Below are positions 13,370-38,696 of a stretch of 54,237 nt of DNA, piece by piece. How positions within the stretch are numbered: the first letter of the stretch is position 1; each line of letters opens with the position of its first letter. Below the pieces are notes generated by a model. That model had not been told where the DNA came from. It saw only the letters and a program-made list of their open reading frames with translations, and did no database searches. The position numbers were made by a program, and so were the translations under genes. The DNA is from a virus, in the IMG/VR virus record IMGVR_UViG_3300046169_000074, positions 1-54,237 of that record; one strand, written 5' to 3'.

Positions 13370-13372
13370 ATA

Positions 13373-13396
13373 TATAATATCTTTAGGTAATCGTAT
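13373..13396 (-). promoter_or_regulatory. Candidate phage promoter, copy 1 (ACGA-N8-AGATATTATA)
   Basis: On the minus strand ATACGA, eight bases, then AGATATTATA, followed 12 bases after the G by the ATG of the 81-aa gene. One of seven identically spaced copies; upstream is the AT-rich ACAATATAA also seen at copy 3. Confidence 0.7.
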
Positions 13397-13407
13397 TTAT
13401 ATTGTAA

Positions 13408-14053
13408 TTAGTATTTTAAGGCTTTACTAATCAAAGGAAACTGATCTTTAAATATACTTTTAGCTTCCTTAGCAACTAACTGTATTTCTTTCTGAGCATG
13501 CTCGTCATCTCTAAGCTGTAGGAAGTGTATCCAACTTCTAATACTACCAGTCATAAATATTTTAGTTTTAGTAGTCAGCGGTAGTATCATCCTAGCTTGC
13601 TCTCTAGCTACGCCAGCGTTTAATAATTCTACATATAAAGATTTTATAGCGCCCAACATACCGTTTATAACTTCATTAGCGTTAGTTGTAGCGTGAAACC
13701 TTATAGTAGGATTAAATACCTCCGTAGATGACTGCCTATTGTCATCACACTGCTTACGTAACTCTATAGGTTCAAACATTTCATCTAACTTGTTTACATC
13801 TTGGTATCGTTGACTAAACTCTTGAAATGTAAATGATCGATGTCTTATAAGCTGTATACCTATTGCTTTGCTAGTATTTATTTCTAATGTTAAGTAGCTA
13901 TGCTCGAAAGGGGCTGAAGTGCTTATGATTGATTAAATAATTTATAAGACCCTCTGGTTTAGCTTTCTTATCCTTACGACTACTACTAACTCTAGCTATT
14001 TCGACTATATTATCTTCAGCGTTAGGTGTAACTGATTGTAGTTTCACATTCAT
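13408..14053 (-). CDS. thyX: FAD-dependent thymidylate synthase ThyX (joined across one indel)
   Basis: About 214 aa. The start is the ATG at 14053 (MNVKLQSVTPNAED). One extra base in the TTT/CCCC run at 13907-13913 must be removed to continue from HFSPF to EHSYLTLE. The ThyX signature is clear at residues 70-83 (RHRSFTFQEFSQRY), and the C-terminus has LPLTTKTKIFMTGSIRSW. It makes dTMP from dUMP with FAD and methylene-tetrahydrofolate. It is upstream of copy 1 of the candidate promoter. Only the indel casts doubt on integrity. Confidence 0.9.
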
Positions 14054-14055
14054 AG

Positions 14056-14788
14056 CTATAATGTTTTAGTTAGTAAATATTGATTTGTATCGAAGTCTTC
14101 TGTCTTGTAAAACAAGTCGTAAGCATCACTAGCTTTACGTACTTTATCTTCGCCCTGACCTATAAAAGCTATCTGAACAGTCAAATAAACCTACTTGATG
14201 AGTGTTTTTATCTATAACTATAAATATCATTTCGTAACCAAACAACTTATTATAAATATAAGCTTGACTATCGTAGTTGTATTTAGACGCAGACCATTTA
14301 AACTTATCTATATCACTGGTAGTTTTAAGATCAATAACTAATTGCTCTTCGTGGTTAATTATATCAGCCTTACCCTTCCATTTATTTCCGAATATCTCTG
14401 TAACAGCTGGCTCTTCGTATGTCACGTCACCTAGTAGTGGTCGTATAAGATCTTTACAAACATCGTTACTCATCACAGCATCCATCATCAACTCTATATT
14501 ATCAACCTCGTGTTGTAATAGACAAACTTCACCACCAGAAAGTTCTTTATATACTTTAGTATTACGAGTTGAAGCTTCGATGATTTTAAAACTCTTTAGT
14601 TTATCAGGTTCTAATATAGCCGTATGGAAATAACCTCCGACAGCAAACGCTGGATTATTACCTTTAGGTTTATTAAGCTCTTTAGGGTTTTTTAGTAAGG
14701 CACTTATGTTTGAATTACTTAAAAACTGTTGACCAAACTCTCCGTAGTAATGCTCATCATCTCTTAATTTGTCTATAATATCCTTCAT
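14056..14788 (-). CDS. PD-(D/E)XK exonuclease, RecB/RecE-like (joined across one indel)
   Basis: About 243 aa when joined. The first frame covers residues 1 to about 208; removing one T from the TTTT run (14164-14167 on the + strand) restores a C-terminus ending LLTKTL at 14056. Motifs fit Cas4/RecB-type phage exonucleases: AFAVGGYFHTAIL, Asp in KWKGKADIINH, and Asp/Lys in VIDLKTTSD, then Gln/Tyr in DSQAYIYN. It follows the ERF annealase gene, so the two probably form an exonuclease-annealase recombination pair. The 3' end almost abuts thyX. Confidence 0.85.
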
Positions 14789-14789
14789 A

Positions 14790-15320
14790 CTAGTTCTTTA
14801 GTTTCTTACGTTGATCAGCTGTTACAGCGTATTTAGCTTCTATAGCAGCAATATCACCACCACCTTTAACAAACTCTATTGCTTTAGCTAATTGATCATT
14901 AGTCATCTTCTTTTTAGCTGGCTTGCTATCGTGTTTGTTGGTAGCGTCTGCATCCTCAGTATCATCAATTAAGAATAGGTTACCTAAAGCGTATTTTTTA
15001 CCGTAAGTAGATGCGGCACCAAATTGCTGAGACGTTTGCATACCTTTTTGATTAAGGTCTACACCGACTATTGCTGTTGCTGTAATTGAGTTTTCGCCAT
15101 CTGATATTGTGGCTGTAGATTGCATCATTGGTACAGGGTCAACGCTAATGATTTCTTCATTAACTGTTACGTACACATTATGCTTTACTAGGAACGGTTT
15201 TACCGCTTCGAGGATGTCTTCAGCTTTACGGAAGTAGTACTTACCGAAGCTATTGTACGAAGACTTTTTAGCTTTTAATTCAGTCTGAACGACTGCTAAA
15301 GTTTTGGTTAATTTAGTCAT
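14790..15320 (-). CDS. ERF-family single-strand annealing protein
   Basis: 176 aa. The ERF pattern is visible: LAVVQTELKA, GKYYFRKAEDILEAV, and the QQFGAASTYGKKYALGNLF block, with an acidic linker and a basic C-terminal helical region. These proteins anneal complementary single strands during phage recombination or replication. It is immediately upstream of the RecB-like nuclease, the usual partner. Confidence 0.9.
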   Translation of the reverse strand: MTKLTKTLAVVQTELKAKKSSYNSFGKYYFRKAEDILEAVKPFLVKHNVYVTVNEEIISVDPVPMMQSTATISDGENSITATAIVGVDLNQKGMQTSQQFGAASTYGKKYALGNLFLIDDTEDADATNKHDSKPAKKKMTNDQLAKAIEFVKGGGDIAAIEAKYAVTADQRKKLKN

Positions 15321-15392
15321 TGGCTTTTGGTTTATCGGTACCTATATAATCACATATAAGGCCCCTAATTTAACATTTATTTTTAACTTAAA

Positions 15393-16148
15393 CTACAGGT
15401 AATCAACCACTTGCGAGTGCGGTACATTATCTATTAATTTGTCTATAGCTTGCTTTTTTAACTGTGAAACACGTACGTAAGAGCTAGTACCTTTAATACC
15501 TAAAACTTCAGCTATCTCTTTAGCGGAATACTTACTACAGTCTAAACCGTAAGATAATCTCAATACTTGATATTCTTTAGGGTTTAAATGCTCCATCATT
15601 ATACTTTTTAAGTATGCTAGCAATATATCTTTATTATATTCTTTAGCATTATCAGGTATATCATTAAAAGTGTTATTATCATCAGTATTATTATCTAAGC
15701 TTAAAAACACCGAATTAAAAAACAAGGCAACCATTTTTTTATCCTCACCGAAATCTTTACGTATTTCGTTTAGTTTATGCTCTGGTATACGCATAGTACC
15801 TCTATTCATATCAATAGCTCTTCGTATTGCACCACGTATACGTTTTGCTAAAAAAGATTTTAGTCTTTGTTCTTGATCTTCGGCTTCGCATATAGTATTC
15901 CAGTTGATTCTATCAACAGCTTGTATTAAACCTAAATTACCTTCTTGTATAAGATCATTTATAGTCATAACACCTGAAGCTTGTTGAGCTGTGGAAAACT
16001 TACGTGCTAAATTCTCTACCAAAGGTAAAAACTTAACTATAAGTTGATCTCTAGTGTATTCATGAAACTCTCTACGAGGGAGAAGCTCAATACTTTCGCT
16101 TACATCATTTTTATATCTTAAATAATTTTGTATATTATATTTCTTCAC
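15393..16148 (-). CDS. Phage-encoded sigma-70-family factor
   Basis: 251 aa with a GTG start at 16148 overlapping the previous stop (GTGA). Region 2 is clear at about residues 40-105 (ENLARKF, DLIQEGNLGLIQAVDRI, FLAKRIRGAIRRAI), and region 4 HTH at about 185-240 (LNPKEYQVLRLSYGL, AKEIAEVLGI, SYVRVSQLKKQAID). Region 1.1 is absent. It should redirect host RNA polymerase to phage promoters; the seven ACGA-N8-AGATATTATA copies are the obvious candidate targets. Confidence 0.93.
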   Translation of the reverse strand: MKKYNIQNYLRYKNDVSESIELLPRREFHEYTRDQLIVKFLPLVENLARKFSTAQQASGVMTINDLIQEGNLGLIQAVDRINWNTICEAEDQEQRLKSFLAKRIRGAIRRAIDMNRGTMRIPEHKLNEIRKDFGEDKKMVALFFNSVFLSLDNNTDDNNTFNDIPDNAKEYNKDILLAYLKSIMMEHLNPKEYQVLRLSYGLDCSKYSAKEIAEVLGIKGTSSYVRVSQLKKQAIDKLIDNVPHSQVVDYL

Positions 16149-16783
16149 AATGTTCCATTTAATAGTTCTTTTTCTCTTTTTAATTCGTTACATATATTAC
16201 GATGAATTGTACGTGTAGAACAGTCTAATAAACTTGCTAGACGGCTTATCGTGATCTTTTTTCCCATATCGTTAATATCTATCATACATTGATAAATATC
16301 ATCAGGATGGATCCGTTTTTGACGACCTATTAAACCACCTACTATACTTAACTTTTCAGCTTTATCGATACCTATACCTTGTTTAAATATAACCTTACGT
16401 AGTTTATTCTTAGGTGGAGCATCAAGATCAGACATGTAAACGTCATGTATAATTCTATCTAACGATGCTTCAGATATTGTAAAGGTACAAAAACCATTTG
16501 ACTTATCAGCTATAAATTCCGATAAATCTGTAAAATCATCTGTAGTCAACCTAGGATTTAAATACCAAAGCACTAATAAGTGCCATTTTAAACTCTTAAA
16601 AGTATTTATCTTTGCCTTGCTTTTAAATAAATCATAAGCAGAATATGTACCGTCAGCGTAAAACCAATATTGATTTGTTTCTATAGTAGGTTCTTCTAGA
16701 CTTGTATTTGGGTCTAACCTAGTTATAATTCTTTTACGATGTAACCATTCAAAATTCCTTGATATATTTAAGTTTTGTGACAT
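16145..16783 (-). CDS. HTH DNA-binding protein upstream of the sigma factor
   Basis: 212 aa. The C-terminal part has a replication-initiator or resolvase-like HTH (KITISRLASLLDCSTRTIHRN), and the middle is basic. It overlaps the sigma gene by 4 bases. Its ATG lies inside the right arm of palindrome copy C (16777-16820), so its translation or transcription may be controlled there. Candidate regulator or initiator; family not identified. Confidence 0.75.
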   Translation of the reverse strand: MSQNLNISRNFEWLHRKRIITRLDPNTSLEEPTIETNQYWFYADGTYSAYDLFKSKAKINTFKSLKWHLLVLWYLNPRLTTDDFTDLSEFIADKSNGFCTFTISEASLDRIIHDVYMSDLDAPPKNKLRKVIFKQGIGIDKAEKLSIVGGLIGRQKRIHPDDIYQCMIDINDMGKKITISRLASLLDCSTRTIHRNICNELKREKELLNGTL

Positions 16784-16820
16784 TAGCCAGTTACTATATT
16801 ATTAATTAGGCTTTTGTCAC
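16777..16820. repeat. Palindromic element, copy C
   Basis: GTGACATTAGCC, 20 bases, GGCTTTTGTCAC; 10 of 12 arm positions pair. On the minus strand the arm GGCTAATGTCAC contains the stop (TAA) of the 46-aa gene and the ATG of the HTH gene, so a folded RNA would hide the start codon. The loop is inverted relative to copies A and B. Confidence 0.65.
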
Positions 16821-16923
16821 AGTCGGAGTGTAACGTTGCAATGATAATCCGCTTAGAATCATCACCTTGAGGATATTTAATTTTATTAAATTCCTCTATT
16901 TTCTTAATTAGGTCTTCTTTCAT
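16783..16923 (-). CDS. Hypothetical protein, 46 aa
   Basis: Begins MKEDLIKKIEEFNKIKYP and ends inside palindrome copy C. The stop and the next start overlap as TAATG, and its 5' end overlaps the upstream gene by 20 bases. The first half is a charged helix. No known family. Confidence 0.65.
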   Translation of the reverse strand: MKEDLIKKIEEFNKIKYPQGDDSKRIIIATLHSDCDKSLINNIVTG

Positions 16924-17374
16924 AAATAGTTTCTTTATTAGGGTTTGCAACTGTATTTTTTTCGCCTATGTAATAATTCCAATAAGCCTCAACACTACAT
17001 TCAGCTTTATACTCATCAGGCATACACTGAGGTGGTTGTGTTAATAATTCCATTGGTATACCTTTAGGTATTTGCCATAAGTGCTTACATTTAGTTATAG
17101 ATAAATGCTCTTTACCGTATCTATTTCTATATTCCTCACCTAAGCCCATCATATGTCTGTATAACCAAGAATAGTTACTAGCATTCTCACGCGTCCATTT
17201 TGTTGAAGGGTGATTATAATGCGCTTTCTTATAAGGTATATCTACACTACTTTCATAATGATGATGTGCAGTACATAGCATTTGTGCAGATTCTAAGATC
17301 ATTTTAACTACATGCTTATTATATTGTAGCCTCGCAGCTTCAAACGGATCTTCATCTAAGTAAAATATATTCAT
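16904..17374 (-). CDS. Conserved phage protein, 156 aa (seen in T4-like cyanophages)
   Basis: The pattern F-Y-L-D-x-D-P...Y-N-K-H-V-V-K-M-I-L-E-S-A-Q-M-L-C-T-A-H-H, then HYNHPSTKW and WLYRHMMGLGEEY, is one I know from marine phage genomes without a firm function. The many His, Cys and acidic residues would suit a metal-dependent enzyme. The start overlaps the previous stop as ATGA. Function not assigned. Confidence 0.8.
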   Translation of the reverse strand: MNIFYLDEDPFEAARLQYNKHVVKMILESAQMLCTAHHHYESSVDIPYKKAHYNHPSTKWTRENASNYSWLYRHMMGLGEEYRNRYGKEHLSITKCKHLWQIPKGIPMELLTQPPQCMPDEYKAECSVEAYWNYYIGEKNTVANPNKETIYERRPN

Positions 17375-17535
17375 TCGTTCCAGCGTTTTATTATGTTAAT
17401 AACTATGAAGGCGTTAGCAATAATAGCTTGTAGAACTATAATTGTTCTAAATATAGCTACTCTATCAGCTTCTTTGTTAGTTTTACCACTTTTTTCACCA
17501 AGGGCTCTAGCCCAATGTCTCCATAAGTATCTCAA
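17371..17535 (-). CDS. Small membrane protein, 54 aa (TTG start)
   Basis: A Trp/Arg-rich N-terminus (RYLWRHWARALG) and one or two hydrophobic stretches (VAIFRTIIVLQAIIANAFIVINII). A TTG start at 17535 overlaps the preceding stop (TTGA) and the stop overlaps the next ATG (ATGA), so overlap on both sides supports it. Role unknown; likely inner-membrane. Confidence 0.65.
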   Translation of the reverse strand: MRYLWRHWARALGEKSGKTNKEADRVAIFRTIIVLQAIIANAFIVINIIKRWNE

Positions 17536-17651
17536 TCTTCATATATTTTGTCTAACAGTTGTACAGCAACTCTTAGAGTTATTTTTTCTTCTTCGTATAG
17601 TTTTTGAACTAATTTACTTATCTTCATACGCTTTATTTGACTTTTATTCAT
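17532..17651 (-). CDS. Hypothetical protein, 39 aa
   Basis: Highly charged helix (K/E-rich, ISKLVQKLYEEEKITLRV). The ATG at 17651 overlaps the ligase stop (ATGAATAA). Longer in-frame versions lie inside the ligase gene and are unlikely. Confidence 0.6.
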   Translation of the reverse strand: MNKSQIKRMKISKLVQKLYEEEKITLRVAVQLLDKIYED

Positions 17652-18528
17652 AATCTCGTATACATTTAAACAAAGGGTGTCGGTAACTACCAGCTTTAGT
17701 ACGTTCGAAGTACGTAAAGGTAGCTGTTTTACCAATCCATTTTTGCATTTGTTTGAAATTTGTTTGTAACTTTTTGAAATTATCCATTACAGGCATACCA
17801 AATTCAATACCGTTAGCATCAATAGCTAGAAATTTACCGATAGTACCAGTTCGTTTACCTTTACCTTCAACCCAGCCAACTATTTCAGCTTCAGAGTCAT
17901 GGAAGTCTTTGAATTTACGTAAACTATGAGATCGTTTAGACTGATACTCAGAGTTAGTACGTAATATAGAACCTTCGTAACCTTTAGCTAAGTTAGACCC
18001 GTGTAGTTGTTTTGCAAACTTTTCAGCCCATACTTCGTGAGTTTCAACGTGTTTTACACAATAAGACTCTGTTAAATTCAACTTAACCCACTCGTCACGT
18101 AGATCAAACTTACCTGACCAGTGTTCAGATTTAGCGAAACGATCTGATAATATAGCATCGTAACAGTGGAACTGAACTAGGTTTTTAGATTCTATTCTGT
18201 GATCCATTGTAGGTTTAGTTTTACGCACACAAGATATAATCTTTTCAAAGTCATCTTTTAGATCGTGGTTGTACAATTCACCGTCAAGAACTACATCTGG
18301 GTTACATTCAAAGAACCATTGTAAACTTTCAAGTATGTGCCGTATGTTTTTCCACTCTTTACCAGTACGTGAATAAGCTTTAATAACAGTACCTAAAACT
18401 ACTGGGTCGTACTCAGCTTGTATTAAGCAACGTACGCCATCAAGCTTTGGTTGAATGAAGTTTTTAGTTTTATAATCTATTGGTTTTTTACTTACCGGGT
18501 AAGCTAGCATTGGTTTATGTCTCATCAT
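17644..18528 (-). CDS. ATP-dependent DNA ligase
   Basis: About 294 aa from the ATG pair at 18528/18525, which overlaps the previous stop (ATGATGAGACATAA). Nucleotidyltransferase motifs: I at residues 28-33 (KLDGVR, with Lys28 adenylated), III around VLDGELY, IV at KGYEGSIL and V at KFKDF; the C-terminal OB part includes FTYFERTKAG. Compact T7-type ligase for sealing Okazaki fragments and repair. Confidence 0.95.
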   Translation of the reverse strand: MMRHKPMLAYPVSKKPIDYKTKNFIQPKLDGVRCLIQAEYDPVVLGTVIKAYSRTGKEWKNIRHILESLQWFFECNPDVVLDGELYNHDLKDDFEKIISCVRKTKPTMDHRIESKNLVQFHCYDAILSDRFAKSEHWSGKFDLRDEWVKLNLTESYCVKHVETHEVWAEKFAKQLHGSNLAKGYEGSILRTNSEYQSKRSHSLRKFKDFHDSEAEIVGWVEGKGKRTGTIGKFLAIDANGIEFGMPVMDNFKKLQTNFKQMQKWIGKTATFTYFERTKAGSYRHPLFKCIRDYE

Positions 18529-18799
18529 CTTGTTCTCCTTCTTCATTTGGTTTGTTAAATTCTTCAGTTATATTAAGTTTATCAGTTAATTTTTCTATTT
18601 TAATCTTCATTACAGCACATTTTTCATACTCTTCACGATCTAGGTATATGTTTTGTAATGTAACACATCTAGCTAACTCACCTACCATATGATCTCTACT
18701 GTCATGGGTAAGCCAGTCTTCGCCAGATGTCATCATAGCTTTTTTTATCAAGGCATCAGCTACGTATACGCCTAGTTTTTCTAAGTCTTCGTTCGTCAT
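18515..18799 (-). CDS. Hypothetical acidic protein, 94 aa
   Basis: Helical, with an acidic C-terminal tail (EEGEQDDET). The ATG is 12 bases after the G of candidate promoter copy 2, so this is likely the first gene of the ligase transcript. It overlaps the ligase start. Family unknown. Confidence 0.7.
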   Translation of the reverse strand: MTNEDLEKLGVYVADALIKKAMMTSGEDWLTHDSRDHMVGELARCVTLQNIYLDREEYEKCAVMKIKIEKLTDKLNITEEFNKPNEEGEQDDET

Positions 18800-18802
18800 A
18801 TA

Positions 18803-18826
18803 TATAATATCTACATCAATTCGTAT
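18803..18826 (-). promoter_or_regulatory. Candidate phage promoter, copy 2
   Basis: ATACGA-N8-AGATATTATA on the minus strand, with the downstream sequence ATATATG giving the ATG of the 94-aa gene. Its upstream block lies inside the last codons of the preceding gene. Confidence 0.7.
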
Positions 18827-19200
18827 TTAGATCGTAATTTATCTGGTTTACCTACAAATAAACAGGTTTTACCTTCAAATATACTAACCCAGAACTCTTC
18901 ACAACCAGGTTTAACCCATATATAGTATACAAAATCAACCCACAACTTCGTTGTTTCTGACTCTAGTATTATTTTAGAGCTAAACTTTTGGTTTTCTAAG
19001 TACTTTATTAAGTTTATTGGAACTCTAGTTATAACATACTCATCAGTATCTTCTAAAAACTTAGCTAATTCAACACCTAAGTAAGCAGGGAAACCATCAT
19101 AATGTCTATATATTTGATAGGTTTCAGGCTTTTTAGGTCTTTCACTGAACGAAATACCTGGTTCTCGCTTAGCAAATCTTATTATTCCTTTAGTCGACAT
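18811..19200 (-). CDS. Hypothetical protein, 129 aa
   Basis: Started at the ATG 19200 (MSTKGIIRFAKREPG), which overlaps the previous stop by 11 bases; an upstream in-frame start at 19254 would overlap it far more. Mixed alpha/beta, with aromatic residues near FVYYIWVKPGCEEFWVSIF. No family recognised. Confidence 0.7.
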   Translation of the reverse strand: MSTKGIIRFAKREPGISFSERPKKPETYQIYRHYDGFPAYLGVELAKFLEDTDEYVITRVPINLIKYLENQKFSSKIILESETTKLWVDFVYYIWVKPGCEEFWVSIFEGKTCLFVGKPDKLRSKYELM

Positions 19201-19369
19201 ATTTACCTTTTTTATAGCCAAATGAGAATATTTGATCATTATCAAGCATTTCATTTAGAAATTTATACTCATTAGTTAACCTTGGTCTAATACAGTACTT
19301 CGTTGAGTAAATTACTTCTTCTGAATGAGCTCTTTCAGTATAAAAAAACTGTACTAAATACTTTTTCAT
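19190..19369 (-). CDS. Hypothetical protein, 59 aa
   Basis: Begins MKKYLVQFFYTERAHSEE. The start overlaps the previous stop (ATGA) and the end overlaps the next start. Tyr/Phe- and Lys-rich, without a membrane segment. No known family. Confidence 0.65.
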   Translation of the reverse strand: MKKYLVQFFYTERAHSEEVIYSTKYCIRPRLTNEYKFLNEMLDNDQIFSFGYKKGKYVD

Positions 19370-19677
19370 ACTTCAAAATCTTCAACGTTAGCACCCATTT
19401 TCTTTAACATATCTACAACTGTACCTGGTAATTCAAACATACCATCATAATCAGTCAGTAGCTCACTAGAGAACCATAAACCACCCTCAGCGTAGTAGTC
19501 GTTACCTCCGCTCTCTTCGTCGTAAAGCTCAAATCCGCCGTTTTCATTGTCTTTATCCCACCATACCTCGTAATTCATAGTTTTACTCTCTGGCTTAGTT
19601 CCATTAAATGACGTTTGGTAATTAACATACTCAACTTCCTTGCGTTTTTCACTTAAAATATTAGATTGTTTTTCCAT
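19366..19677 (-). CDS. Hypothetical acidic protein, 103 aa
   Basis: Rich in E, D, G, W and Y (for example VWWDKDNENGGFELYDEES), with a helical C-terminus. Its strong negative charge could suit a DNA-mimic or inhibitor role, but that is speculation. The start overlaps the MazG-like gene by 17 bases. Confidence 0.65.
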   Translation of the reverse strand: MEKQSNILSEKRKEVEYVNYQTSFNGTKPESKTMNYEVWWDKDNENGGFELYDEESGGNDYYAEGGLWFSSELLTDYDGMFELPGTVVDMLKKMGANVEDFEV

Positions 19678-19990
19678 AATTGTCTTTGTAAATAGGTATT
19701 TGAGTTCTATACCTTTTGATTCTACTTAATTTTTCAGCTTCTGCTTTTGCGATGTTCTCTTGCTTGATCTTTTGTTTGTTGCGTTTGAAGTCTATTTGCT
19801 CTTGAATTAGATCTGAGTTGTAATACTTTTTAACTTTATCGAGCCTCCATTGTACATCTCCGATCTCTTCGATGATCTCTGGCGTTAAATCTTTGCTAGA
19901 CTTGTTAAGTTGTTGCGTTATAACTGTAGCTAACTCTAGAAGTTCTTCAACTAGTTTTTGATGATCTTTTAAGTTTTTACCTATATCCAT
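19661..19990 (-). CDS. MazG-like helical protein
   Basis: 109 aa. The first 60 residues carry a MazG-like pattern, HQKLVEELLELATVI then IIEEIGDVQWRLDKV, followed by a long K/Q-rich coiled coil. Possibly an NTP pyrophosphohydrolase or a remnant that keeps only the helical scaffold. Linked by TAATG to the 26-aa peptide before it. Confidence 0.6.
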   Translation of the reverse strand: MDIGKNLKDHQKLVEELLELATVITQQLNKSSKDLTPEIIEEIGDVQWRLDKVKKYYNSDLIQEQIDFKRNKQKIKQENIAKAEAEKLSRIKRYRTQIPIYKDNYGKTI

Positions 19991-20070
19991 TACTCATCCG
20001 ATGTGTTATAAGCTACTATACATATAATTCCGACACTAAGTGCTGTAGCTATCATTAATAATAAGTGCAT
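19990..20070 (-). CDS. Membrane micro-protein, 26 aa
   Basis: MHLLLMIATALSVGII followed by a few polar residues; one transmembrane helix. The stop overlaps the next ATG (TAATG), as for other genes in this block. Confidence 0.5.
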   Translation of the reverse strand: MHLLLMIATALSVGIICIVAYNTSDE

Positions 20071-20080
20071 AATTTTCTGT

Positions 20081-20272
20081 TTAAAGGTTTGCTTTTTTAA
20101 TAAAGTGATTCGCTACTTGTGGTATATGCTCTTTGTAATACGGTTGCTCATCTTTACACCACATACGTACCTCGTCTTTTGTTTTAAATGTTTGGTAAGG
20201 AAACGTCACTTCCAGACTTTCAATAAAGTCAGACACGTGCCAACCTTCCCAAATGTGTTTATCGTTTTTCAT
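20081..20272 (-). CDS. Hypothetical protein, 63 aa
   Basis: Trp- and His-containing soluble protein (HIWEGWHVSDFIESLEVTF). It is the first protein gene after the tRNA-like cluster. No recognised family. Confidence 0.6.
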   Translation of the reverse strand: MKNDKHIWEGWHVSDFIESLEVTFPYQTFKTKDEVRMWCKDEQPYYKEHIPQVANHFIKKANL

Positions 20273-20288
20273 AGTTTTATTTATTTAG

Positions 20289-20387
20289 TGCTCAAGGGTG
20301 GATTCGAACCACCACTTCCAATTACTACTTCCGTATCTACCCGCTTAGTTCATAGTTGTAGCGCTCTATCATATCAGAGTCTTGAGC
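20289..20387 (-). tRNA. tRNA-like element T1 (anticodon not resolvable)
   Basis: Acceptor stem GCTCAAG/CTTGAGC is perfect, the T arm is GGTGG-TTCGAAT-CCACC, and a D-type hairpin CTCT/AGAG follows the acceptor. The molecule is 99 nt, and no 5-bp stem with a 7-nt loop exists in the 52 nt between the D and T arms. The best hairpin is CGCT/AGCG with a 14-nt loop. It is either an interrupted or oversized tRNA or a tRNA-like structure. CCA is not encoded. Confidence 0.55.
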
Positions 20388-20461
20388 CGTAAGCCTTATT
20401 TCTTCTCCATTAGACAGGATTATATAGGGACCTGAATTGCGAACCTTAAAGTTTGCTTACG
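20388..20461 (-). ncRNA. Possible tRNA-like element T0, abutting T1
   Basis: 74 nt closed by a perfect 7-bp inverted repeat CGTAAGC/GCTTACG. It begins 10 nt after T2 and ends exactly where T1 begins, as in a tRNA array. A consensus T arm is missing: GGTTCGCAATTC lies in the D-arm half instead, and a CAGG/CCTG hairpin with a 12-nt loop lies in the middle. Weak as a tRNA; could be chance. Confidence 0.25.
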
Positions 20462-20470
20462 TAACGTTTG

Positions 20471-20617
20471 CTGTAGGGGAAGGACTCGAACCTCCACGTA
20501 GCGGTTAGCTATAGGACAAGTTGTGCACAATGGTGGTCAACCCGCTATCCTAAAGTTTATTCCGTGATCTACACCCCCGAGACAGGAGGGCACGTCTGCC
20601 AATTTCGTCACCCTACA
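20471..20617 (-). tRNA. tRNA-like element T2 (oversized; GTC at anticodon position if the stem is right)
   Basis: Acceptor TGTAGGG/CCCTACA is perfect, D arm ACG-AAATTGGCAGA-CGT contains the GG pair, anticodon-type hairpin CCCTC-CTGTCTC-GGGGG places GTC, and the T arm is GGAGG-TTCGAGT-CCTTC. About 75 nt separate the anticodon hairpin from the T arm, with an internal stem TAGCGG...CCGCTA. Total 147 nt, far beyond a class II tRNA. U at position 37 is also abnormal. Confidence 0.5.
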
Positions 20618-20675
20618 ATTAGCTTAGAATAAACCTATCTTTTTACTAATTCCTCTTGAATTTCGTTTGTATCTT

Positions 20676-20756
20676 TCATAATTTTACTTTATTTTGCTTA
20701 ACTTCTACTGCCGCTATAACGAATACAGCGATTATACCTGCTATATAGTATGACAT
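20676..20756 (-). CDS. Membrane micro-protein, 26 aa
   Basis: MSYYIAGIIAVFVIAA followed by a short Lys-rich tail. The start overlaps the previous stop (TAATG). The start context CTAATGTCATAC resembles the right arm of the palindromic elements A-C. Single transmembrane helix; function unknown. Confidence 0.5.
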   Translation of the reverse strand: MSYYIAGIIAVFVIAAVEVKQNKVKL

Positions 20757-21031
20757 TAGTCTAGTAACACCATATAAGCTTCCGCATTATTATGTCTAAA
20801 CCAGTCTAAACCTCTTCGAAGATCTTTGACAGCTTCATTATACGAGTCTGTATGTGGATTCATACGTTCAGTCCACATAGTAGCACCCATCACCATATCG
20901 TATATAGATAGTTCTATTGCGTTTAGCTTTATACTTTCTCTACTAAATGGGTTTGTACATACTGCACCTTCTGTATAAACCTCACCGTTGAACCATTTAG
21001 GTACTTTTTGTTCTTTAGTATTAGTCTTCAT
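20756..21031 (-). CDS. Conserved phage hypothetical protein, 91 aa
   Basis: Soluble, with KVPKWFNGEVYTEGAVCTNP followed by a helical half. I have seen this K-V-P-K-W-F-N-G-E-V-Y type start in other marine phage genomes, always without a function. It overlaps the 128-aa gene upstream by 11 bases. Confidence 0.75.
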   Translation of the reverse strand: MKTNTKEQKVPKWFNGEVYTEGAVCTNPFSRESIKLNAIELSIYDMVMGATMWTERMNPHTDSYNEAVKDLRRGLDWFRHNNAEAYMVLLD

Positions 21032-21407
21032 TTTCTATTGAGCTTATAATTTGTAAGTGGTTGTCTAATATATTGCTTTGTATTCTATTCGCTAAGCTTT
21101 CTACAAGATAGCTTTCAACGTTGTAACTATCTACATTTATAGTGTTGTCGTAGTCAATGCTTAATTCTACGTTAATATCATCGCTGCTTAAGCTATCTAA
21201 CTCTGATTCAACGGTTTCGTAAATACAATCTTGTATCTCATCCCACTGCTTATCAGTCATAGATGGTTTATTAGCTAGTTTTAAGTCTTTATGAAGGTTA
21301 TCACTAAGCTGTTTAGCTGCGCCTAACTGTGTAGCTAAGTCTCTTATTACTTCGTCTTGTTGAGTTATTTTAAGCTCTAACTCATCAGCTGTTTTACTCT
21401 TGTACAT
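21021..21407 (-). CDS. Hypothetical coiled-coil acidic protein, 128 aa
   Basis: The first 50 residues form a coiled coil (ELELKITQQDEVIRDLATQL), then an acidic region rich in D, S and N. No membrane segment or known domain. Confidence 0.7.
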   Translation of the reverse strand: MYKSKTADELELKITQQDEVIRDLATQLGAAKQLSDNLHKDLKLANKPSMTDKQWDEIQDCIYETVESELDSLSSDDINVELSIDYDNTINVDSYNVESYLVESLANRIQSNILDNHLQIISSIENED

Positions 21408-21591
21408 ATGTTAATCCTTTATAGTTAATCCATTCTTCAACGCCTGGCGTGTCTTGGTAGTCAATGCAACCGAAGTTGTTAGGTGTGTTACCAACCTCGT
21501 AAGGTCGCCATTTAGTAGTATAAACTATACCAGCTATCTCGTTGGTTACTAGCATTCTACCGGTTTCTTTGTTAATTTTTAGTGTCTGCAT
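21394..21591 (-). CDS. Hypothetical protein, 65 aa
   Basis: Mixed beta protein with YTTKWRPYEVGNTPNNFG. First gene after candidate promoter copy 3, with a 25-nt leader, and it overlaps the next gene by 14 bases. Confidence 0.7.
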   Translation of the reverse strand: MQTLKINKETGRMLVTNEIAGIVYTTKWRPYEVGNTPNNFGCIDYQDTPGVEEWINYKGLTYVQE

Positions 21592-21606
21592 TTGTTTTTC
21601 GTTTAT

Positions 21607-21630
21607 TATAATATCTTTGAGTGGTCGTAT
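21607..21630 (-). promoter_or_regulatory. Candidate phage promoter, copy 3
   Basis: ATACGA-N8-AGATATTATA on the minus strand, preceded by ACAATATAA as in copy 1. It lies between the 191-aa and 65-aa genes, just after the stop of the former. Confidence 0.7.
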
Positions 21631-21642
21631 TTATATTGTATA

Positions 21643-22218
21643 TTAAGTTAAATTATACCTGTGACCGTCAATAATTACTTGAACCTCTCTTGCGCTACAT
21701 AAATCTTTTTCTAAAGTTAAGTAGTCCGAAAGTAAAGCATCATACTTCTCTGATAAAATATCATAGTCTCTAGCTGTCTTTGTAGGTAAATTATTCATTA
21801 CATAAGAATCTATATGGTATAAAGTTTTACCTTTATAGTAATTCTTCAGTATATAGTTGGCTAAGTAAATGATTCTGTCTTCTTCTCTGTTTATTAATAT
21901 ACGCTTAACTGACTCGTAAGACTTATATTTCTTAGTGAAATTGCAGAAATATTTTTTAGTATGTAAATACTTCTTGTTAATCTGATAAGAACTATGACCG
22001 TATTCACTACAATTTCTAACGTAACCCGAAGAGTATATAGCGAATTTTAACTTTGTAGTTTTACCAGTTGAAAACAATCTCTCTGCAGGTATTTGCCACA
22101 TTCTTGTACCATTCTTTTGTTGAATTTTCGATGTAATTTCTTTAATACCGAGTACATCGAACAAAGCTAGAGCTTCGTGGTGCGACTTTACATACTCGTT
22201 TTCGTAAGTTTGTTTCAT
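21643..22218 (-). CDS. Hypothetical protein, 191 aa
   Basis: Lys/Tyr-rich. An N-terminal segment (SHHEALALFDVLGIKEI) is followed by a Cys/Tyr-rich basic region and a helical C-terminus. Largest unknown of the micro-gene block. Start overlaps the previous stop (ATGA). No recognised domain; nucleic-acid binding would fit the charge. Confidence 0.7.
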   Translation of the reverse strand: MKQTYENEYVKSHHEALALFDVLGIKEITSKIQQKNGTRMWQIPAERLFSTGKTTKLKFAIYSSGYVRNCSEYGHSSYQINKKYLHTKKYFCNFTKKYKSYESVKRILINREEDRIIYLANYILKNYYKGKTLYHIDSYVMNNLPTKTARDYDILSEKYDALLSDYLTLEKDLCSAREVQVIIDGHRYNLT

Positions 22219-22382
22219 AAGTATAATATTTTTTCAATTCTTTCTTTTTCACTCTGGCTTAGCGTACCGTAGTACTCGTAGTAAAACTCATCTAGTGATA
22301 AATTACCGTTACGATCACCATTTTCGCTTAATTCTACAAGCAGATCTTCTGCCTTACTCCACATTTCGTCGTAATTATCCAT
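22215..22382 (-). CDS. Hypothetical acidic protein, 55 aa
   Basis: MDNYDEMWSKAEDLL start; contains an EF-hand-like acidic turn (ENGDRNGNLSLDEF) with D/N/D-type ligands followed by Glu, so Ca binding is possible. Overlaps the next gene as ATGA. Confidence 0.65.
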   Translation of the reverse strand: MDNYDEMWSKAEDLLVELSENGDRNGNLSLDEFYYEYYGTLSQSEKERIEKILYL

Positions 22383-22383
22383 A

Positions 22384-22539
22384 CTATTTAGTTATATAAA
22401 ATCCTTGTTCATGGTTTGCCTCAGAAGCGTTTAGCTCAGCTAGTATTTCTTGTGCGTTTTCTTCATCTAATCCTTCTCTAATTACTTGCTCCCAGTCTGA
22501 AGTTTTGGAGCAGCATACAATTTTGTACTTGTAAATCAT
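22384..22539 (-). CDS. Hypothetical protein, 51 aa
   Basis: Begins MIYKYKIVCCSKTSDWEQV and continues as a charged helix. The start overlaps the previous stop (ATGA). The fold would be beta-alpha-alpha-beta by eye. Family unknown. Confidence 0.65.
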   Translation of the reverse strand: MIYKYKIVCCSKTSDWEQVIREGLDEENAQEILAELNASEANHEQGFYITK

Positions 22540-22739
22540 ATCTCTTTAATTTTAGTGTTAACGTTTTCCATTGCCATTCTGTAACCTGTATTCATACTCA
22601 TCTGCATGAGAAGTAAATCCATATTACCGTGATTAGCTTTAGCGAATTTCTCTAAGTAGTCTCTGTTAGGAGCTGCTACCATAGATCTTTCAAGCCTACC
22701 GAGCTCTCTGTCGATGTATTCTGTTAGTTCTTTATTCAT
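22536..22739 (-). CDS. Hypothetical helical protein, 67 aa
   Basis: All-helical and Met-rich in its second half (LLLMQMSMNTGYRMAMEN). Part of the overlapping micro-gene string. No known family. Confidence 0.65.
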   Translation of the reverse strand: MNKELTEYIDRELGRLERSMVAAPNRDYLEKFAKANHGNMDLLLMQMSMNTGYRMAMENVNTKIKEI

Positions 22740-22887
22740 GACTAATTTTTATTAAGTTAATTTCTTCGTTTATCATGTCTAATCTTGACATACCTTCTAG
22801 TGTTTCTACTTCGCATTCCCAGCAAGTGCCACACTCTACTTGTTCTCTTAACGTTTCTAACGCTAGTATTAGTAAATCTTTGTTCAT
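22732..22887 (-). CDS. Hypothetical protein, 51 aa, with C-x2-C-x2-C cluster
   Basis: Helical, with Cys residues in VECGTCWECEVE. Possible small metal-binding protein. First protein after tRNA-like element T3, overlapping the next start by 8 bases. Confidence 0.6.
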   Translation of the reverse strand: MNKDLLILALETLREQVECGTCWECEVETLEGMSRLDMINEEINLIKISHE

Positions 22888-22900
22888 AATTTTAATTTAG

Positions 22901-23020
22901 TGGACATGGTAGGAATCGAACCTACATTAACCATTATGCCCTTAAAAGCTATGTTACTCGTCAGTAACTCCATCTCCAGCGGAAGTTTCGTGGTTCCTAG
23001 TTGCACTTAGTTCCATGTCT
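22901..23020 (-). tRNA. tRNA-like element T3 (boundaries uncertain)
   Basis: T arm GTAGG-TTCGATT-CCTAC and 3' acceptor CATGTCC plus discriminator A are clear. Two 5' partners are possible: AGACATG at 23020 (120 nt, 6 of 7 pairs) or GGAGATG at 22977 (77 nt, one G-G mismatch, D-type stem GTTA/TAAC). With neither does a 5-bp/7-nt anticodon arm form, though a CTTTTAA heptamer (Lys-type loop) is present without a stem. Confidence 0.45.
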
Positions 23021-23054
23021 ACTACATGGTTCCAGACCTGTGAGTGTTTTAGCC

Positions 23055-23264
23055 TTACCTTAAACAAGTACCGTAACCTTTACGTCTACCTGCTTTATAC
23101 AAAGCGTCAGCAGTTTCTTGACTAACTATTTGTATTGTGTTACCTGTCTTGTGATTGGTGATCGGTGCACAAGCATATCGCTGTGTACGTGAACAACCTA
23201 TACAAGTTGTATACCCTAAGTCTAACCGTCCTTGTGGTATCTCTGTGTTACATTTACATTTCAT
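23055..23264 (-). CDS. Small zinc-ribbon-like protein, 69 aa
   Basis: Starts MKCKCNTEIPQG and has a second pair in TTCIGCSRTQ, giving four Cys that could bind zinc. The C-terminus is basic. The ATG lies 12 bases after the G of candidate promoter copy 4. Likely a nucleic-acid or protein adaptor; family not assigned. Confidence 0.7.
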   Translation of the reverse strand: MKCKCNTEIPQGRLDLGYTTCIGCSRTQRYACAPITNHKTGNTIQIVSQETADALYKAGRRKGYGTCLR

Positions 23265-23267
23265 ATA

Positions 23268-23291
23268 AATAATATCTCAGAGTGATCGTAT
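23268..23291 (-). promoter_or_regulatory. Candidate phage promoter, copy 4
   Basis: AATACGA-N8-AGATATTATT on the minus strand, upstream flank ACAAAACT. It lies between the stop of the 54-aa gene and the start of the zinc-ribbon gene. Confidence 0.7.
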
Positions 23292-23455
23292 TAGTTTTGT
23301 GATTTGAACGTACTTGGCCAGTCACCACAGAAGTCATAACATGCTTCACATACGTCATCTTCGCAAAGGTGCAGAGGTGCAGAGCAAATACTACACTCAG
23401 ATGAGTTATCGTCTTCAATAAACTCAGTAAAATAAGTCTCGTTGCTGTTCTTCAT
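23291..23455 (-). CDS. Hypothetical acidic Cys-rich protein, 54 aa
   Basis: Acidic N-terminus, then SECSICSAPLHLCEDDVCEAC: paired Cys and a His suit a small treble-clef or ribbon zinc site. Soluble. Part of a string of overlapping micro-genes; start overlaps the end of the 36-aa gene. Confidence 0.65.
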   Translation of the reverse strand: MKNSNETYFTEFIEDDNSSECSICSAPLHLCEDDVCEACYDFCGDWPSTFKSQN

Positions 23456-23534
23456 ACTCTTGTATTTGTATATTTAAATACTCTATTTCCCACTCGTCTC
23501 TGTTCTCTTTGATCTTATCTGTAGTAAGTTGCAT
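23424..23534 (-). CDS. Hypothetical protein, 36 aa
   Basis: Charged, Glu/Gln-rich helix (WEIEYLNIQIQEYEEQQ). Overlaps both neighbours. Function unknown. Confidence 0.5.
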   Translation of the reverse strand: MQLTTDKIKENRDEWEIEYLNIQIQEYEEQQRDLFY

Positions 23535-23652
23535 ATACTTTTACTCCTTTTTTAGTTTCACAAATTAGTTTATCTTCTTTCTGTATAACCTTTTCCGTTA
23601 CTTTTGGTTTATACTTAGGGTTCTTGCTGTTTAGTTTTCTTTTCTTACTCAT
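23515..23652 (-). CDS. Hypothetical basic protein, 45 aa
   Basis: Lys-rich start (MSKKRKLNSKNPKYKPK) followed by a short beta segment. Overlaps the previous stop by 8 bases. RNA or DNA binding is possible from the charge only. Confidence 0.55.
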   Translation of the reverse strand: MSKKRKLNSKNPKYKPKVTEKVIQKEDKLICETKKGVKVYATYYR

Positions 23653-23806
23653 TGTCTTCAAAGCTGTTAAAGGATAATATTAGTGCCATTAATGTTACTG
23701 GTGCTACGGCAAGGAACATAATCTTACCTGTCTGATTGAACAGCATCACCATTGAGGAGCATACTATAATAAGTATTAGTCCGTAGTAAAAAGCTAGTGC
23801 TTTCAT
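23645..23806 (-). CDS. Two-helix membrane protein, 53 aa
   Basis: Two hydrophobic helices (YYGLILIIVCSSMVML and IMFLAVAPVTLMALIL) with a short polar turn and an acidic tail. Could be an early membrane-modifying or exclusion protein. No family. Confidence 0.6.
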   Translation of the reverse strand: MKALAFYYGLILIIVCSSMVMLFNQTGKIMFLAVAPVTLMALILSFNSFEDNE

Positions 23807-23822
23807 AGTTTTAGTTTAGTTG

Positions 23823-23933
23823 TTAGTAAAAATCGTAGTATATATCTAATACTTTCTCTCTTTGAGCTTTCGTTAGTCTGCTCCAATGCTCGTTGAATAG
23901 TTGAAAACCTATTCTTAATACTTTTCCATTCAT
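23823..23933 (-). CDS. Hypothetical protein, 36 aa
   Basis: Single amphipathic helix with a W-S-R-L-T-K-A-Q-R-E-K motif. Follows tRNA-like element T4. Function unknown. Confidence 0.5.
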   Translation of the reverse strand: MNGKVLRIGFQLFNEHWSRLTKAQREKVLDIYYDFY

Positions 23934-23946
23934 AATTTATAATTTT

Positions 23947-24054
23947 AGTGATAGCGTGAGAATCGAACTCACCAATACTCCAAGACTACCTGTTGTATAT
24001 ATTTCTGCGCCGTGTTATCACTACTTTAATAAGTGCACCTCGACTTACGATCAC
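23947..24054 (-). tRNA. tRNA-like element T4
   Basis: T arm GTGAG-TTCGATT-CTCAC, acceptor GTGATCG/CTATCAC (6 of 7 pairs), T8-A9, and a D arm AGT-CGAGGTGC-ACT with the GG pair. Fifty-nine nt separate the D and T arms against about 23 in a normal tRNA, and no canonical anticodon arm is present. A shorter 5' end at 24020 gives 73 nt, but then neither D nor anticodon arm folds. Confidence 0.5.
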
Positions 24055-24105
24055 TACAATACTTGTTCATATTTGATTACCAGTAAACAAGTGGAACTAA
24101 CTGGA

Positions 24106-24336
24106 CTACTTCTTCCACCATGGGTTATATGGTTTCTTGTAATTTAACTCGTAGTACTTCGCGTACATTTGCTCAGCTTCGATCTTATAACCATCACTTG
24201 ACAACTTATCTATAGTGTCAAATATTTGGCGATGCTCTCGACTACCGCTTTTGTAGTCACGGTGATCGTCTGAGTAACCATAGAGCCAATCGTGTGATTC
24301 GAGCTGACTCTCGAGTGTTTGTAATAACTTACACAT
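24106..24336 (-). CDS. Hypothetical protein, 76 aa
   Basis: Helical with aromatic clusters (SHDWLYGYSDDHRDY) and a Trp/Lys-rich end. One base from the stop of the next upstream gene. No known family. Confidence 0.65.
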   Translation of the reverse strand: MCKLLQTLESQLESHDWLYGYSDDHRDYKSGSREHRQIFDTIDKLSSDGYKIEAEQMYAKYYELNYKKPYNPWWKK

Positions 24337-24337
24337 G

Positions 24338-24577
24338 TTACTCTACAACTACTGCTTCTGACTCACGAAGAACTTTTGGTAAGTTTCCACTCGCAGTGTA
24401 AGATTTGTACTTGTCCCAGCAAGCCATTTGCTCTAAAGAACCTTTCATAATCTCGAACGCTTTGTCGTGAGAATAAGTAACTGTGTTACCGTTTTTGAAT
24501 GATACTTCAATGTTAGTATCTTTTCCGATTAGAGATTTACGCACTACGAATCTCTTTGATTTAAGTAAATTTGCCAT
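24338..24577 (-). CDS. Early paralogue 1 (KRFVVRKSLIGKDT family), 79 aa
   Basis: Shares with the gene at 25011-25232 the pattern KRFV(V/I)RKSLIGKDT...Y-x-H-D...M-x-C...KYKSYT-x-S...P...R. Small alpha/beta protein. It follows candidate promoter copy 5. Two diverged copies with similar promoters suggest a local duplication. Function unknown. Confidence 0.75.
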   Translation of the reverse strand: MANLLKSKRFVVRKSLIGKDTNIEVSFKNGNTVTYSHDKAFEIMKGSLEQMACWDKYKSYTASGNLPKVLRESEAVVVE

Positions 24578-24622
24578 AACTTATTGATTTTTATTTAGTT
24601 ATTAATTGTTTTTAGTTACGTT

Positions 24623-24646
24623 TATAATATCTACACTTGTTCGTGT
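24623..24646 (-). promoter_or_regulatory. Candidate phage promoter, copy 5
   Basis: ACACGA-N8-AGATATTATA followed by AACGTAACTAAAA; the flank ACAAACTA upstream and the leader start are shared with copy 6. Confidence 0.65.
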
Positions 24647-24686
24647 TTAGTTTGTAAAAGTAGTAGATTTGTTTTAGTGATAATTT

Positions 24687-24755
24687 TTAGCTAGCAGGTA
24701 CTCCACCACTTGTCTCAATGAGCAATAATACTTCATTTAGTGAATAGTGTGACAT
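24687..24755 (-). CDS. Possible 22-aa micro-protein
   Basis: MSHYSLNEVLLLIETSG and a few more residues. Its start codon sits in the right arm of palindrome A, exactly as the HTH gene start sits in copy C. Otherwise unsupported. Confidence 0.3.
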   Translation of the reverse strand: MSHYSLNEVLLLIETSGGVPAS

Positions 24756-24793
24756 TAGGCTACTAATATAGTATAGTAACAGGCAATTGTCAC
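24749..24793. repeat. Palindromic element, copy A
   Basis: GTGACATTAGGC, 21 bases, GGCAATTGTCAC. The outer six pairs are perfect, with an inner TACTA/TAGTA pairing in the loop. It spans the stop of the 47-aa membrane gene and the ATG of the 22-aa ORF on the minus strand. Confidence 0.6.
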
Positions 24794-24933
24794 AGTTTAT
24801 CAAGAGATCTTATTGCTTGAAATAGTGCAATGATCGAAGTGATAGCAGTTAATAGAAAACCTGTGTGATGAGTGATCCACAAATGTGAAGCAAACAGAGT
24901 TAGGTACAGTGTAAACATGTGATACTTTTGCAT
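24790..24933 (-). CDS. Two-helix membrane protein, 47 aa
   Basis: MQKYHMFTLYLTLFASHLW, a His-rich turn, then a second hydrophobic helix (GFLLTAITSIIALFQA). Located between paralogues 1 and 2. Likely inner-membrane; role unknown. Confidence 0.55.
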   Translation of the reverse strand: MQKYHMFTLYLTLFASHLWITHHTGFLLTAITSIIALFQAIRSLDKL

Positions 24934-24939
24934 AGTAAT

Positions 24940-25011
24940 TTATTTTAAATAATTAGTAATGATCGCGTGTGATACTATGATCGCCGATGTGAGTAGAATA
25001 AAGATCGCCAT
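24940..25011 (-). CDS. Membrane micro-protein, 23 aa
   Basis: MAIFILLTSAIIVSHA followed by a short polar end. The start overlaps the stop of paralogue 2 (TAATG), the same coupling used throughout the block. Confidence 0.5.
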   Translation of the reverse strand: MAIFILLTSAIIVSHAIITNYLK

Positions 25012-25232
25012 TAGTCAACGATCTTCATGTCTCTACAAAAAGCTGGCATTGCATTGCTATTCGTATATGATTTATACTTTGTAAAGCAATTCATACTTTC
25101 GAACCTCTCCTTGTGAGCGTTGTATACTTCGTCGTGATTATACTTCACGTTCTCACCCTTCTTGTTGGTGAATGTAATAATAGTGTCTTTGCCAATTAAT
25201 GACTTGCGAATAACGAATCTTTTTAATTCCAT
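25011..25232 (-). CDS. Early paralogue 2 (KRFVIRKSLIGKDT family), 73 aa
   Basis: Homologue of 24338-24577 (see there): KRFVIRKSLIGKDT near the start, NHDE, M-N-C and KYKSYTNS near the end. Preceded by candidate promoter copy 6. Function unknown; duplication suggests dosage or divergence for different host targets. Confidence 0.75.
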   Translation of the reverse strand: MELKRFVIRKSLIGKDTIITFTNKKGENVKYNHDEVYNAHKERFESMNCFTKYKSYTNSNAMPAFCRDMKIVD

Positions 25233-25260
25233 AATAGTGTTTGTTTATTTTAGTTACGTT

Positions 25261-25284
25261 TATAATATCTGTTGTACTTCGTTT
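25261..25284 (-). promoter_or_regulatory. Candidate phage promoter, copy 6
   Basis: AAACGA-N8-AGATATTATA followed by AACGTAACTAAAA, almost the same leader as copy 5; precedes paralogue 2 by about 38 nt. Confidence 0.65.
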
Positions 25285-25296
25285 TTAGTTTGTGAA

Positions 25297-25458
25297 TTAC
25301 TCGATTGCTTTTAATTTTTCTAAGAATAAGAACATACAAAACCCAGAACTGAAAGCTATTGCGTAGAAGATTGAATGCTCTGCCATGCCGAGCCATAGAG
25401 CTACGAGAGTTGAGAATAAGCAGAAGAAGAATGCAGCGTAAAGTAAGATAGTTTTCAT
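25297..25458 (-). CDS. Two-helix membrane protein, 53 aa
   Basis: MKTILLYAAFFFCLFSTLVA, then a second hydrophobic helix around IFYAIAFSSGFCMFLF and a short Lys/Glu tail. First gene of the minus-strand block, expressed from candidate promoter copy 7, so probably among the earliest products after infection. Confidence 0.65.
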   Translation of the reverse strand: MKTILLYAAFFFCLFSTLVALWLGMAEHSIFYAIAFSSGFCMFLFLEKLKAIE

Positions 25459-25481
25459 AAGTAGTTTATTTTTGTTACATA

Positions 25482-25505
25482 TATAATATCTAATTCGCTT
25501 CGTAG
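25482..25505 (-). promoter_or_regulatory. Candidate phage promoter, copy 7 (first promoter of the minus block)
   Basis: CTACGA-N8-AGATATTATA on the minus strand, 24 nt upstream of the ATG at 25458 counted from the end of the motif. Confidence 0.65.
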
Positions 25506-25521
25506 CGAGATCGTGAAAGTA

Positions 25522-38673: not shown

Positions 38674-38696
38674 AATTTATTTTATTATATATTATT

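What the first reader, a model, noticed from the sequence alone, without database searches (positions are those of the whole stretch)
13373..25505. Seven-copy two-block promoter-like motif with fixed 8-base spacing
On the minus strand, ACGA, exactly eight variable bases, then AGATATTAT(A/T) occurs at 13373, 18803, 21607, 23268, 24623, 25261 and 25482, each just upstream of an early gene. The eight inner bases differ in every copy while both blocks are held. In three copies the ATG follows the G by only 12 bases. It lacks a classic -35/-10 pair and the Bacteroidota TTTG / TAnnTTTG boxes. This looks like a phage-specific promoter class giving leaderless or near-leaderless mRNAs.
Basis: seen in the sequence. 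Interest (0 to 1): 0.75.

Follow-up and report, generated by a model that had tools for sequence, protein, structure and literature searches.

The report
Phage promoter class with likely sigma
Seven near-identical DNA signals in this uncultured phage are almost certainly start signals for its left-arm genes; the same signal recurs in dozens of related phages that all seem to carry their own RNA-polymerase specificity (sigma) factor, so these phages appear to have replaced the host's promoter code with a private one.

Summary
In detail: seven exact ACGA-N8-AGATATTATW copies, all on the minus strand, none expected. It is only the core of a larger element. Aligning about 380 sites from 80 relatives gives TTTACAAACTAAA(T/C)ACGA-N8-n-GATAATA, then a purine exactly 12 bases after the G (375 of 378 sites). 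Read as a promoter: -35-like TACAAAC, 18-bp spacer, -10 GATAAT (GATATT in this phage), +1 at that purine, plus an unusual fixed block TAAAYACGA inside the spacer. ORF starts peak sharply at the inferred +1, so three window copies (13373, 18803, 23268) should give leaderless mRNAs. The element lies only on the left-arm strand (449 vs 3 hits), has rigid spacing, and is homogenised within each genome at contact-like positions but not in the N8. The window encodes a sigma-70-family protein (15393-16148, regions 2 and 4) that accompanies the motif in relatives; three isolates without the sigma lack the motif and use host-type TAnnTTTG promoters at late genes. Best explanation: a phage sigma and its cognate promoters. 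That this sigma, not another factor, reads them is inferred. An AT-rich second motif precedes late genes. No transcript data exist.

The parts
13369..13406 (-). promoter copy 1 (-37 to +1), ATTACAATATAAATACGATTACCTAAAGATATTATATATATG; leaderless, +1 = A of ATG of ORF 13124-13369
18799..18836 (-). promoter copy 2; leaderless, +1 = A of ATG of ORF 18515-18799; overlaps the 3' end of ORF 18811-19254; heads the run with ligase, HTH gene, sigma, ERF, exonuclease
21603..21640 (-). promoter copy 3; predicted leader 12 nt to ORF 21394-21591
23264..23301 (-). promoter copy 4; leaderless, +1 = A of ATG of ORF 23055-23264
24619..24656 (-). promoter copy 5 (best match to the family consensus); predicted leader 42 nt to ORF 24338-24577
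25257..25294 (-). promoter copy 6; predicted leader 25 nt to ORF 25011-25232
25478..25515 (-). promoter copy 7, outermost copy of the left arm; weakest upstream block; predicted leader 20 nt to a 53-aa ORF 25297-25458
15393..16148 (-). sigma-70-family RNA polymerase sigma factor, 251 aa (regions 2 and 4); proposed reader of the promoters
   Evidence: PHROG 351 E=4e-27; PDB SigA hits; AlphaFold model and Foldseek; conserved in 80 relatives
16145..16783 (-). conserved HTH-type protein of unknown family directly upstream of sigma; candidate co-factor
   Evidence: weak HTH_11 match; present in 70 of 73 relatives with the sigma; not found in isolates; no solved fold match

Best explanation
The motif is the core of a promoter class read by host core RNA polymerase carrying the phage's own sigma factor (window 15393-16148). 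Layout: TACAAAC at -37 to -31 (-35-like element), TAAAYACGA at -30 to -22 (extra conserved block in the spacer), eight free bases, GATAAT at -12 to -7 (GATATT in this phage), and +1 at the conserved purine 12 bases after the G. Where a gene's ATG sits at +1 the mRNA is leaderless; elsewhere there is an A-rich leader, often about 20 nt. Shown by sequence: motif, length, spacing, strand and arm restriction, conservation, +1 composition, linkage to the sigma gene. Inferred: that it is a promoter, that the sigma reads it, the exact +1, and the temporal class. How the first sigma molecules are made is unknown (weak host promoter, or delivery in the virion).
For: Seven exact copies vs 0 expected. 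ACGA-N8-AGATA: 94 on the sigma strand, 0 on the other, with spacing 8 favoured over 4-13. 34-bp matrix: 449 vs 3 hits by strand, 0 in randomised DNA; three near-complete relatives carry 10-11 sites, essentially all in the left arm on one strand. Rigid spacing: 215 of 220 extended blocks have GATAWTA at exactly 9, none at another distance. Purine at +1 in 375/378, A/T at +2 in 372/378, as expected of multisubunit RNA polymerase start sites. ORF starts peak at +1 (45 sites). Sigma. Linkage: 34 of 48 motif-bearing contigs carry the sigma; 13 of the 14 others are cut off on the downstream side; three sigma-less isolates have no motif with up to 3 mismatches. The promoter sits directly upstream of the sigma gene in 10 of 79 relatives. 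Within-genome homogenisation at -36, -35, -31, -30, -26, -23, -13, -8, not in N8. Sigma residues aligned with Q437 and T440, which set the -12 preference in E. coli sigma70 (PMC2613000), are invariantly G and R while -12 is invariantly G instead of T.
Against: No transcript 5' ends. Sigma and motif are co-inherited, so linkage does not prove recognition; the AT-rich late motif is equally confined to this group and could be the sigma's target. Seven sites of one gene family have a conserved ATG at offset 6 or 10, upstream of the proposed +1. A 16-bp conserved upstream region is longer than a usual sigma region 4 site. The sigma gene lies downstream of six of the seven promoters, leaving first expression unexplained. 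The seed set for the matrix came from one strand, although the plain-pattern test was strand-neutral.
Confidence: 0.72

Rival explanations
1. The sites are promoters, but read by host RNA polymerase plus a phage activator (for instance the conserved HTH protein at 16145-16783) bound to the TAAAYACGA block, as T4 MotA does at middle promoters, while the phage sigma reads the AT-rich late motif.
For: Conserved block in the spacer where sigma alone has no usual contact; HTH gene next to sigma in 70 of 73 relatives and absent from isolates; a second, AT-rich late motif exists; phage sigmas often drive late genes (phiEco32 and 7-11, PMC4331800).
Against: -35/-10 spacing and +1 fit a sigma with regions 2 and 4; the -10 has G not T at -12, unlike the host TAnnTTTG box; concerted change at -35, spacer and -10 positions together; the HTH protein has no recognisable fold relative.
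Confidence: 0.17
2. Promoters of a phage single-subunit RNA polymerase (T7-like, or an injected N4-like one using hairpins), with ACGA at -13 to -10 and the G as +1.
For: AATACGA resembles the T7 promoter upstream part (own knowledge); G = +1 would accommodate the few genes whose ATG is at offset 6 or 10; two copies form perfect hairpins around ACGA (window 25482, L263).
Against: No T7-type polymerase domain found in 27 records, though that search had no positive control; the 2580-aa virion protein of a relative matches no polymerase in PDB or PHROGs; hairpin frequency equals the shuffled control, 8 vs about 6.5; positions -9 to -2 would be unconserved; it does not explain the +1 purine and ATG peak at offset 12.
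Confidence: 0.05
3. Operator or RNA-level element (repressor site or translation signal) placed before left-arm genes rather than a promoter.
For: Fixed position just before genes; no biochemical data.
Against: Not palindromic, strongly oriented, at variable distance from the ATG, with an initiator-like purine at the right distance from a -10-like box.
Confidence: 0.04

Closest known systems
phiEco32 / phage 7-11 sigma factor promoters (PMC4331800)
   Same: Phage-encoded sigma factor distantly related to the sigma-A family, with a cognate phage-specific promoter motif found by overrepresentation
   Different: Different consensus (TAATGTATA in phiEco32), used for middle and late genes; here only the non-structural left arm carries the motif, with an added spacer block, and host-type promoters are not enriched
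T4 middle promoters (MotA box + sigma70 -10) (own knowledge)
   Same: -10 element plus a second conserved block upstream of it
   Different: T4 uses host sigma with AsiA/MotA; here a phage sigma is present and a -35-like block is kept as well; no MotA homologue was found
AR9 late promoters AACA-N6-T(A/G) (PMC5312081)
   Same: Two-block motif with fixed spacing and a T-1/purine+1 start
   Different: Read by a phage multisubunit RNA polymerase of a jumbo phage; AR9 leaders are 26-491 nt; sequence unrelated
Bacteroidota primary sigma promoters TTTG / TAnnTTTG (PMC9723704)
   Same: Presumed host group; such boxes are used at late genes of the sigma-less relatives
   Different: Not enriched in the sigma-bearing phages; consensus unrelated

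Membership tests
Phage sigma-dependent promoter class | Phage encodes a sigma-70-family factor with DNA-binding regions 2 and 4 | tested here: met
Phage sigma-dependent promoter class | -35 and -10 elements about 17 bp apart and +1 about 7 bp after the -10 | tested here: met
   TACAAAC/GATAAT 18 bp apart; purine at +1 in 375/378; positions inferred from sequence
Phage sigma-dependent promoter class | Motif and sigma gene occur together | tested here: met
   one contig (G036) explained only by inference
Phage sigma-dependent promoter class | Holoenzyme with this sigma starts transcription at the sites | not testable with these tools
   needs in vitro transcription
Bacteroidota primary sigma promoter | TTTG and TAnnTTTG boxes | tested here: not met
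   not part of the motif; no enrichment in the group
T7-type single-subunit polymerase promoter | Conserved about -17 to +6 and a cognate polymerase gene | tested here: not met
   -9 to -2 unconserved under that register; no PF00940 match, search without positive control
N4-like virion polymerase hairpin promoter | 5-7 bp stem with 3-nt loop upstream of +1 | tested here: not met
   stem lengths equal to shuffled control
Leaderless promoter | Transcript 5' end at the start codon | tested here: inconclusive
   positional peak of ATG at +1; no 5'-end data; 7 sites conflict

The most novel reading that the evidence does not exclude
A widespread uncultured group of phages related to Flavobacteriia phages has abandoned host promoters and runs its left arm from a three-element promoter in which a phage sigma (-35 and -10) and a second phage protein (spacer block TAAAYACGA) both read the DNA, with a separate AT-rich class for late genes; the sigma would have to be brought in with the virion or made from a cryptic host promoter.
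Probability: 0.3. Interest if true: 0.75.

Novelty: new variant of a known kind. Interest (0 to 1): 0.6.

Why it matters
Promoter codes of phages of Bacteroidota are little known. Here the code, the start site and a candidate reader can be written down from sequence alone for a large environmental phage group whose sigma has no relative in the 50,697-record phage collection, which makes metatranscriptome tests and in vitro reconstitution possible at once. Natural variation of promoter and sigma across dozens of genomes offers a system for working out sigma-DNA specificity, including a G instead of T at -12 matched to changes at the two residues known to set that position in E. coli.

Tried and rejected
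Hairpin (N4-like) promoters: two striking hairpins, but the frequency equals the control. T7-like polymerase: no domain found, search without positive control; giant virion protein without polymerase match. Host promoter: TAnnTTTG not enriched. The motif in bacteria: 2 single hits, in unrelated MAGs, in 257 Gb of bacterial and archaeal genomes. Association of promoter bases with sigma residues: top columns include region 4.2 residue 229 (Q/E) for G-23, but shared ancestry is not controlled, so left as suggestive only. Fold of the HTH protein: no known relative (one unnamed viral model). GATAATATA as a late promoter: the right-arm matches listed look like coding sequence. The first pattern scan of viral contigs mostly returned chance matches and was replaced by the extended pattern. 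Papers: nothing found on this phage group's sigma or motif.

Full report
Observation. The exact pattern ACGA-N8-AGATATTATW occurs seven times in 54,237 bases, always on the minus strand, at the reported coordinates; the shuffled expectation is zero. The copies lie between 13.4 and 25.5 kb, in the left arm, whose genes run on the minus strand. PHROG and Pfam matches put thymidylate synthase, MazG-like protein, ribonucleotide reductase, DNA ligase, ERF, exonuclease and primase/helicase in that arm, and terminase, portal and virion proteins in the plus-strand right arm. The window is a virus record of 54 kb. TerL relatives among isolates are Flavobacterium elemo phages and Cellulophaga and Tenacibaculum phages, at about 47% identity for the elemo phages, and an uncultured podovirus MW202828 at 65%.

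A sigma factor is encoded nearby. ORF 15393-16148 matches PHROG 351 (RNA polymerase sigma factor, 4e-27) and SigA/FliA structures. An AlphaFold model from 23 relatives matches full SigA chains by Foldseek, with large rmsd, probably because the domains are flexibly linked. It has region 2, a 3.2-like linker and region 4. Region 2.4 reads KRI(R/K)GxxRR in the relatives; aligned by eye to E. coli sigma70, Q437 and T440 become G and R. Those two residues are where suppressors of a -12 T-to-C change arise (PMC2613000). No relative of this sigma is found in 50,697 phage records.

The motif in relatives. In 80 IMG/VR loci brought in by the sigma, ACGA-N8-AGATA occurs 94 times on the sigma strand and never on the other; other spacings give 5-31. 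Aligned sites show TTTACAAACTAAA(T/C)ACGA, eight weakly conserved bases, then nGATAATA. A 34-column matrix finds 449 hits against 3 on the other strand and none in randomised sequence. Three near-complete relatives have 10-11 sites in the left arm, all on one strand, and none of strength in the right arm. Of 220 extended upstream blocks 215 are followed by GATAWTA at exactly the same distance and none at another. The window differs from the family at -8: T in all seven copies, A in 369 of 371 sites elsewhere. Bacterial and archaeal genomes hold only two single matches, in unrelated MAGs.

Start site. Over 378 distinct sites the base 12 after the G is a purine in 375 and the next base A or T in 372. 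The first ORF start falls exactly there in 45 sites from 27 loci, against 1 and 3 at the neighbouring offsets, with a second hump at offsets 30-34. This puts GATAAT at -12 to -7, TACAAAC at -37 to -31 with an 18-bp spacer, and +1 at the purine. Three window copies (13373, 18803, 23268) would then be leaderless; the others would have leaders of 12, 20, 25 and 42 nt. Host leaders average 33 nt in F. johnsoniae (PMC6847099). Exceptions: five sites of one gene family have the conserved ATG at offset 6 and two at offset 10, which would be lost from a transcript starting at offset 12. These genes may be read from upstream transcripts, or the start varies; unresolved.

Linkage. Of 48 motif-bearing contigs 34 carry the sigma. 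In 13 of the other 14 the motif cluster ends at a contig end in the direction of transcription, so the sigma would lie beyond the cut. The last (G036) has its one site at the contig start, before a gene resembling one found downstream of the sigma in L274, so the sigma would lie upstream of the cut; that is inference. Isolates phi38:1, elemoC and MW202828 have neither sigma nor motif. The promoter lies directly upstream of the sigma gene in 10 of 79 relatives, with a leaderless sigma start in three, which would make a positive feedback loop.

Concerted change. Within a genome the sites agree far beyond random grouping at -36, -35, -31, -30, -26, -23, -13 and -8, while most of the N8 shows no such excess, which argues against recent copying and for a genome-encoded reader. 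Single sigma residues associated with promoter bases include region 4.2 position 229 for G-23, but ancestry is not controlled, so this is only suggestive.

Two promoter languages. In the sigma-less isolates late genes near portal and capsid have host-type boxes such as TATCTTTG, and TA(T/C)(C/A)TTTG is enriched overall (94 vs 48 expected). In the sigma-bearing phages it is not (74 vs 67), and comparable gene positions carry TTATTAATTATTATTATATTATATT directly before ATG, 99 matches vs 0 by strand. So a second, late class probably exists. Which class the sigma reads is not proven. The left-arm class is preferred because it has the two-element layout of a sigma with regions 2 and 4.

Rivals. Hairpins are not enriched. 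No T7-type polymerase was found, though that search had no positive control, and the giant virion protein of a relative matches no polymerase. An activator on the spacer block remains possible; the conserved HTH protein next to sigma is the obvious candidate but has no known fold relative.

Verdict. A real, strong promoter class of an uncultured phage group, most likely read by the phage's own sigma factor; a new variant of a known kind.

Noticed in passing
window 38667-38696 (+) and relatives' right arms (e.g. L011:17415, L024:9897): AT-rich motif TTATTAATTATTATTATATTATATT directly before the ATG of the genes after portal and after the capsid-gene terminator; likely a late promoter class, in place of the TAnnTTTG boxes of sigma-less isolates.
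   Followed up: partly
window 16145-16783 (-): Conserved 212-aa HTH-type protein beside the sigma gene in 70 of 73 relatives, absent from isolates, without a solved fold relative.
   Followed up: partly
L218:1807, L221:7683, L247:8222, L257:8234, L267:8722: In one gene family the start ATG lies inside the -10 element (GATAATATGAC), upstream of the inferred start site; unexplained.
   Followed up: partly
378 promoter sites in relatives, offset 10: 125 sites have ATG at -2 to +1 (71 of them ATGTAA), so the transcript would begin with its G and the apparent start codon is not used.
   Followed up: partly
window 39561-39569 (+): GATATTATA in the gap before late gene 39607, right after a terminator-like hairpin, without the upstream block; chance or a weak variant promoter.
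   Followed up: no
window ends: The record is probably incomplete: several relatives are 62-69 kb and carry a 2580-2811-aa frame not seen whole in the window.
   Followed up: no
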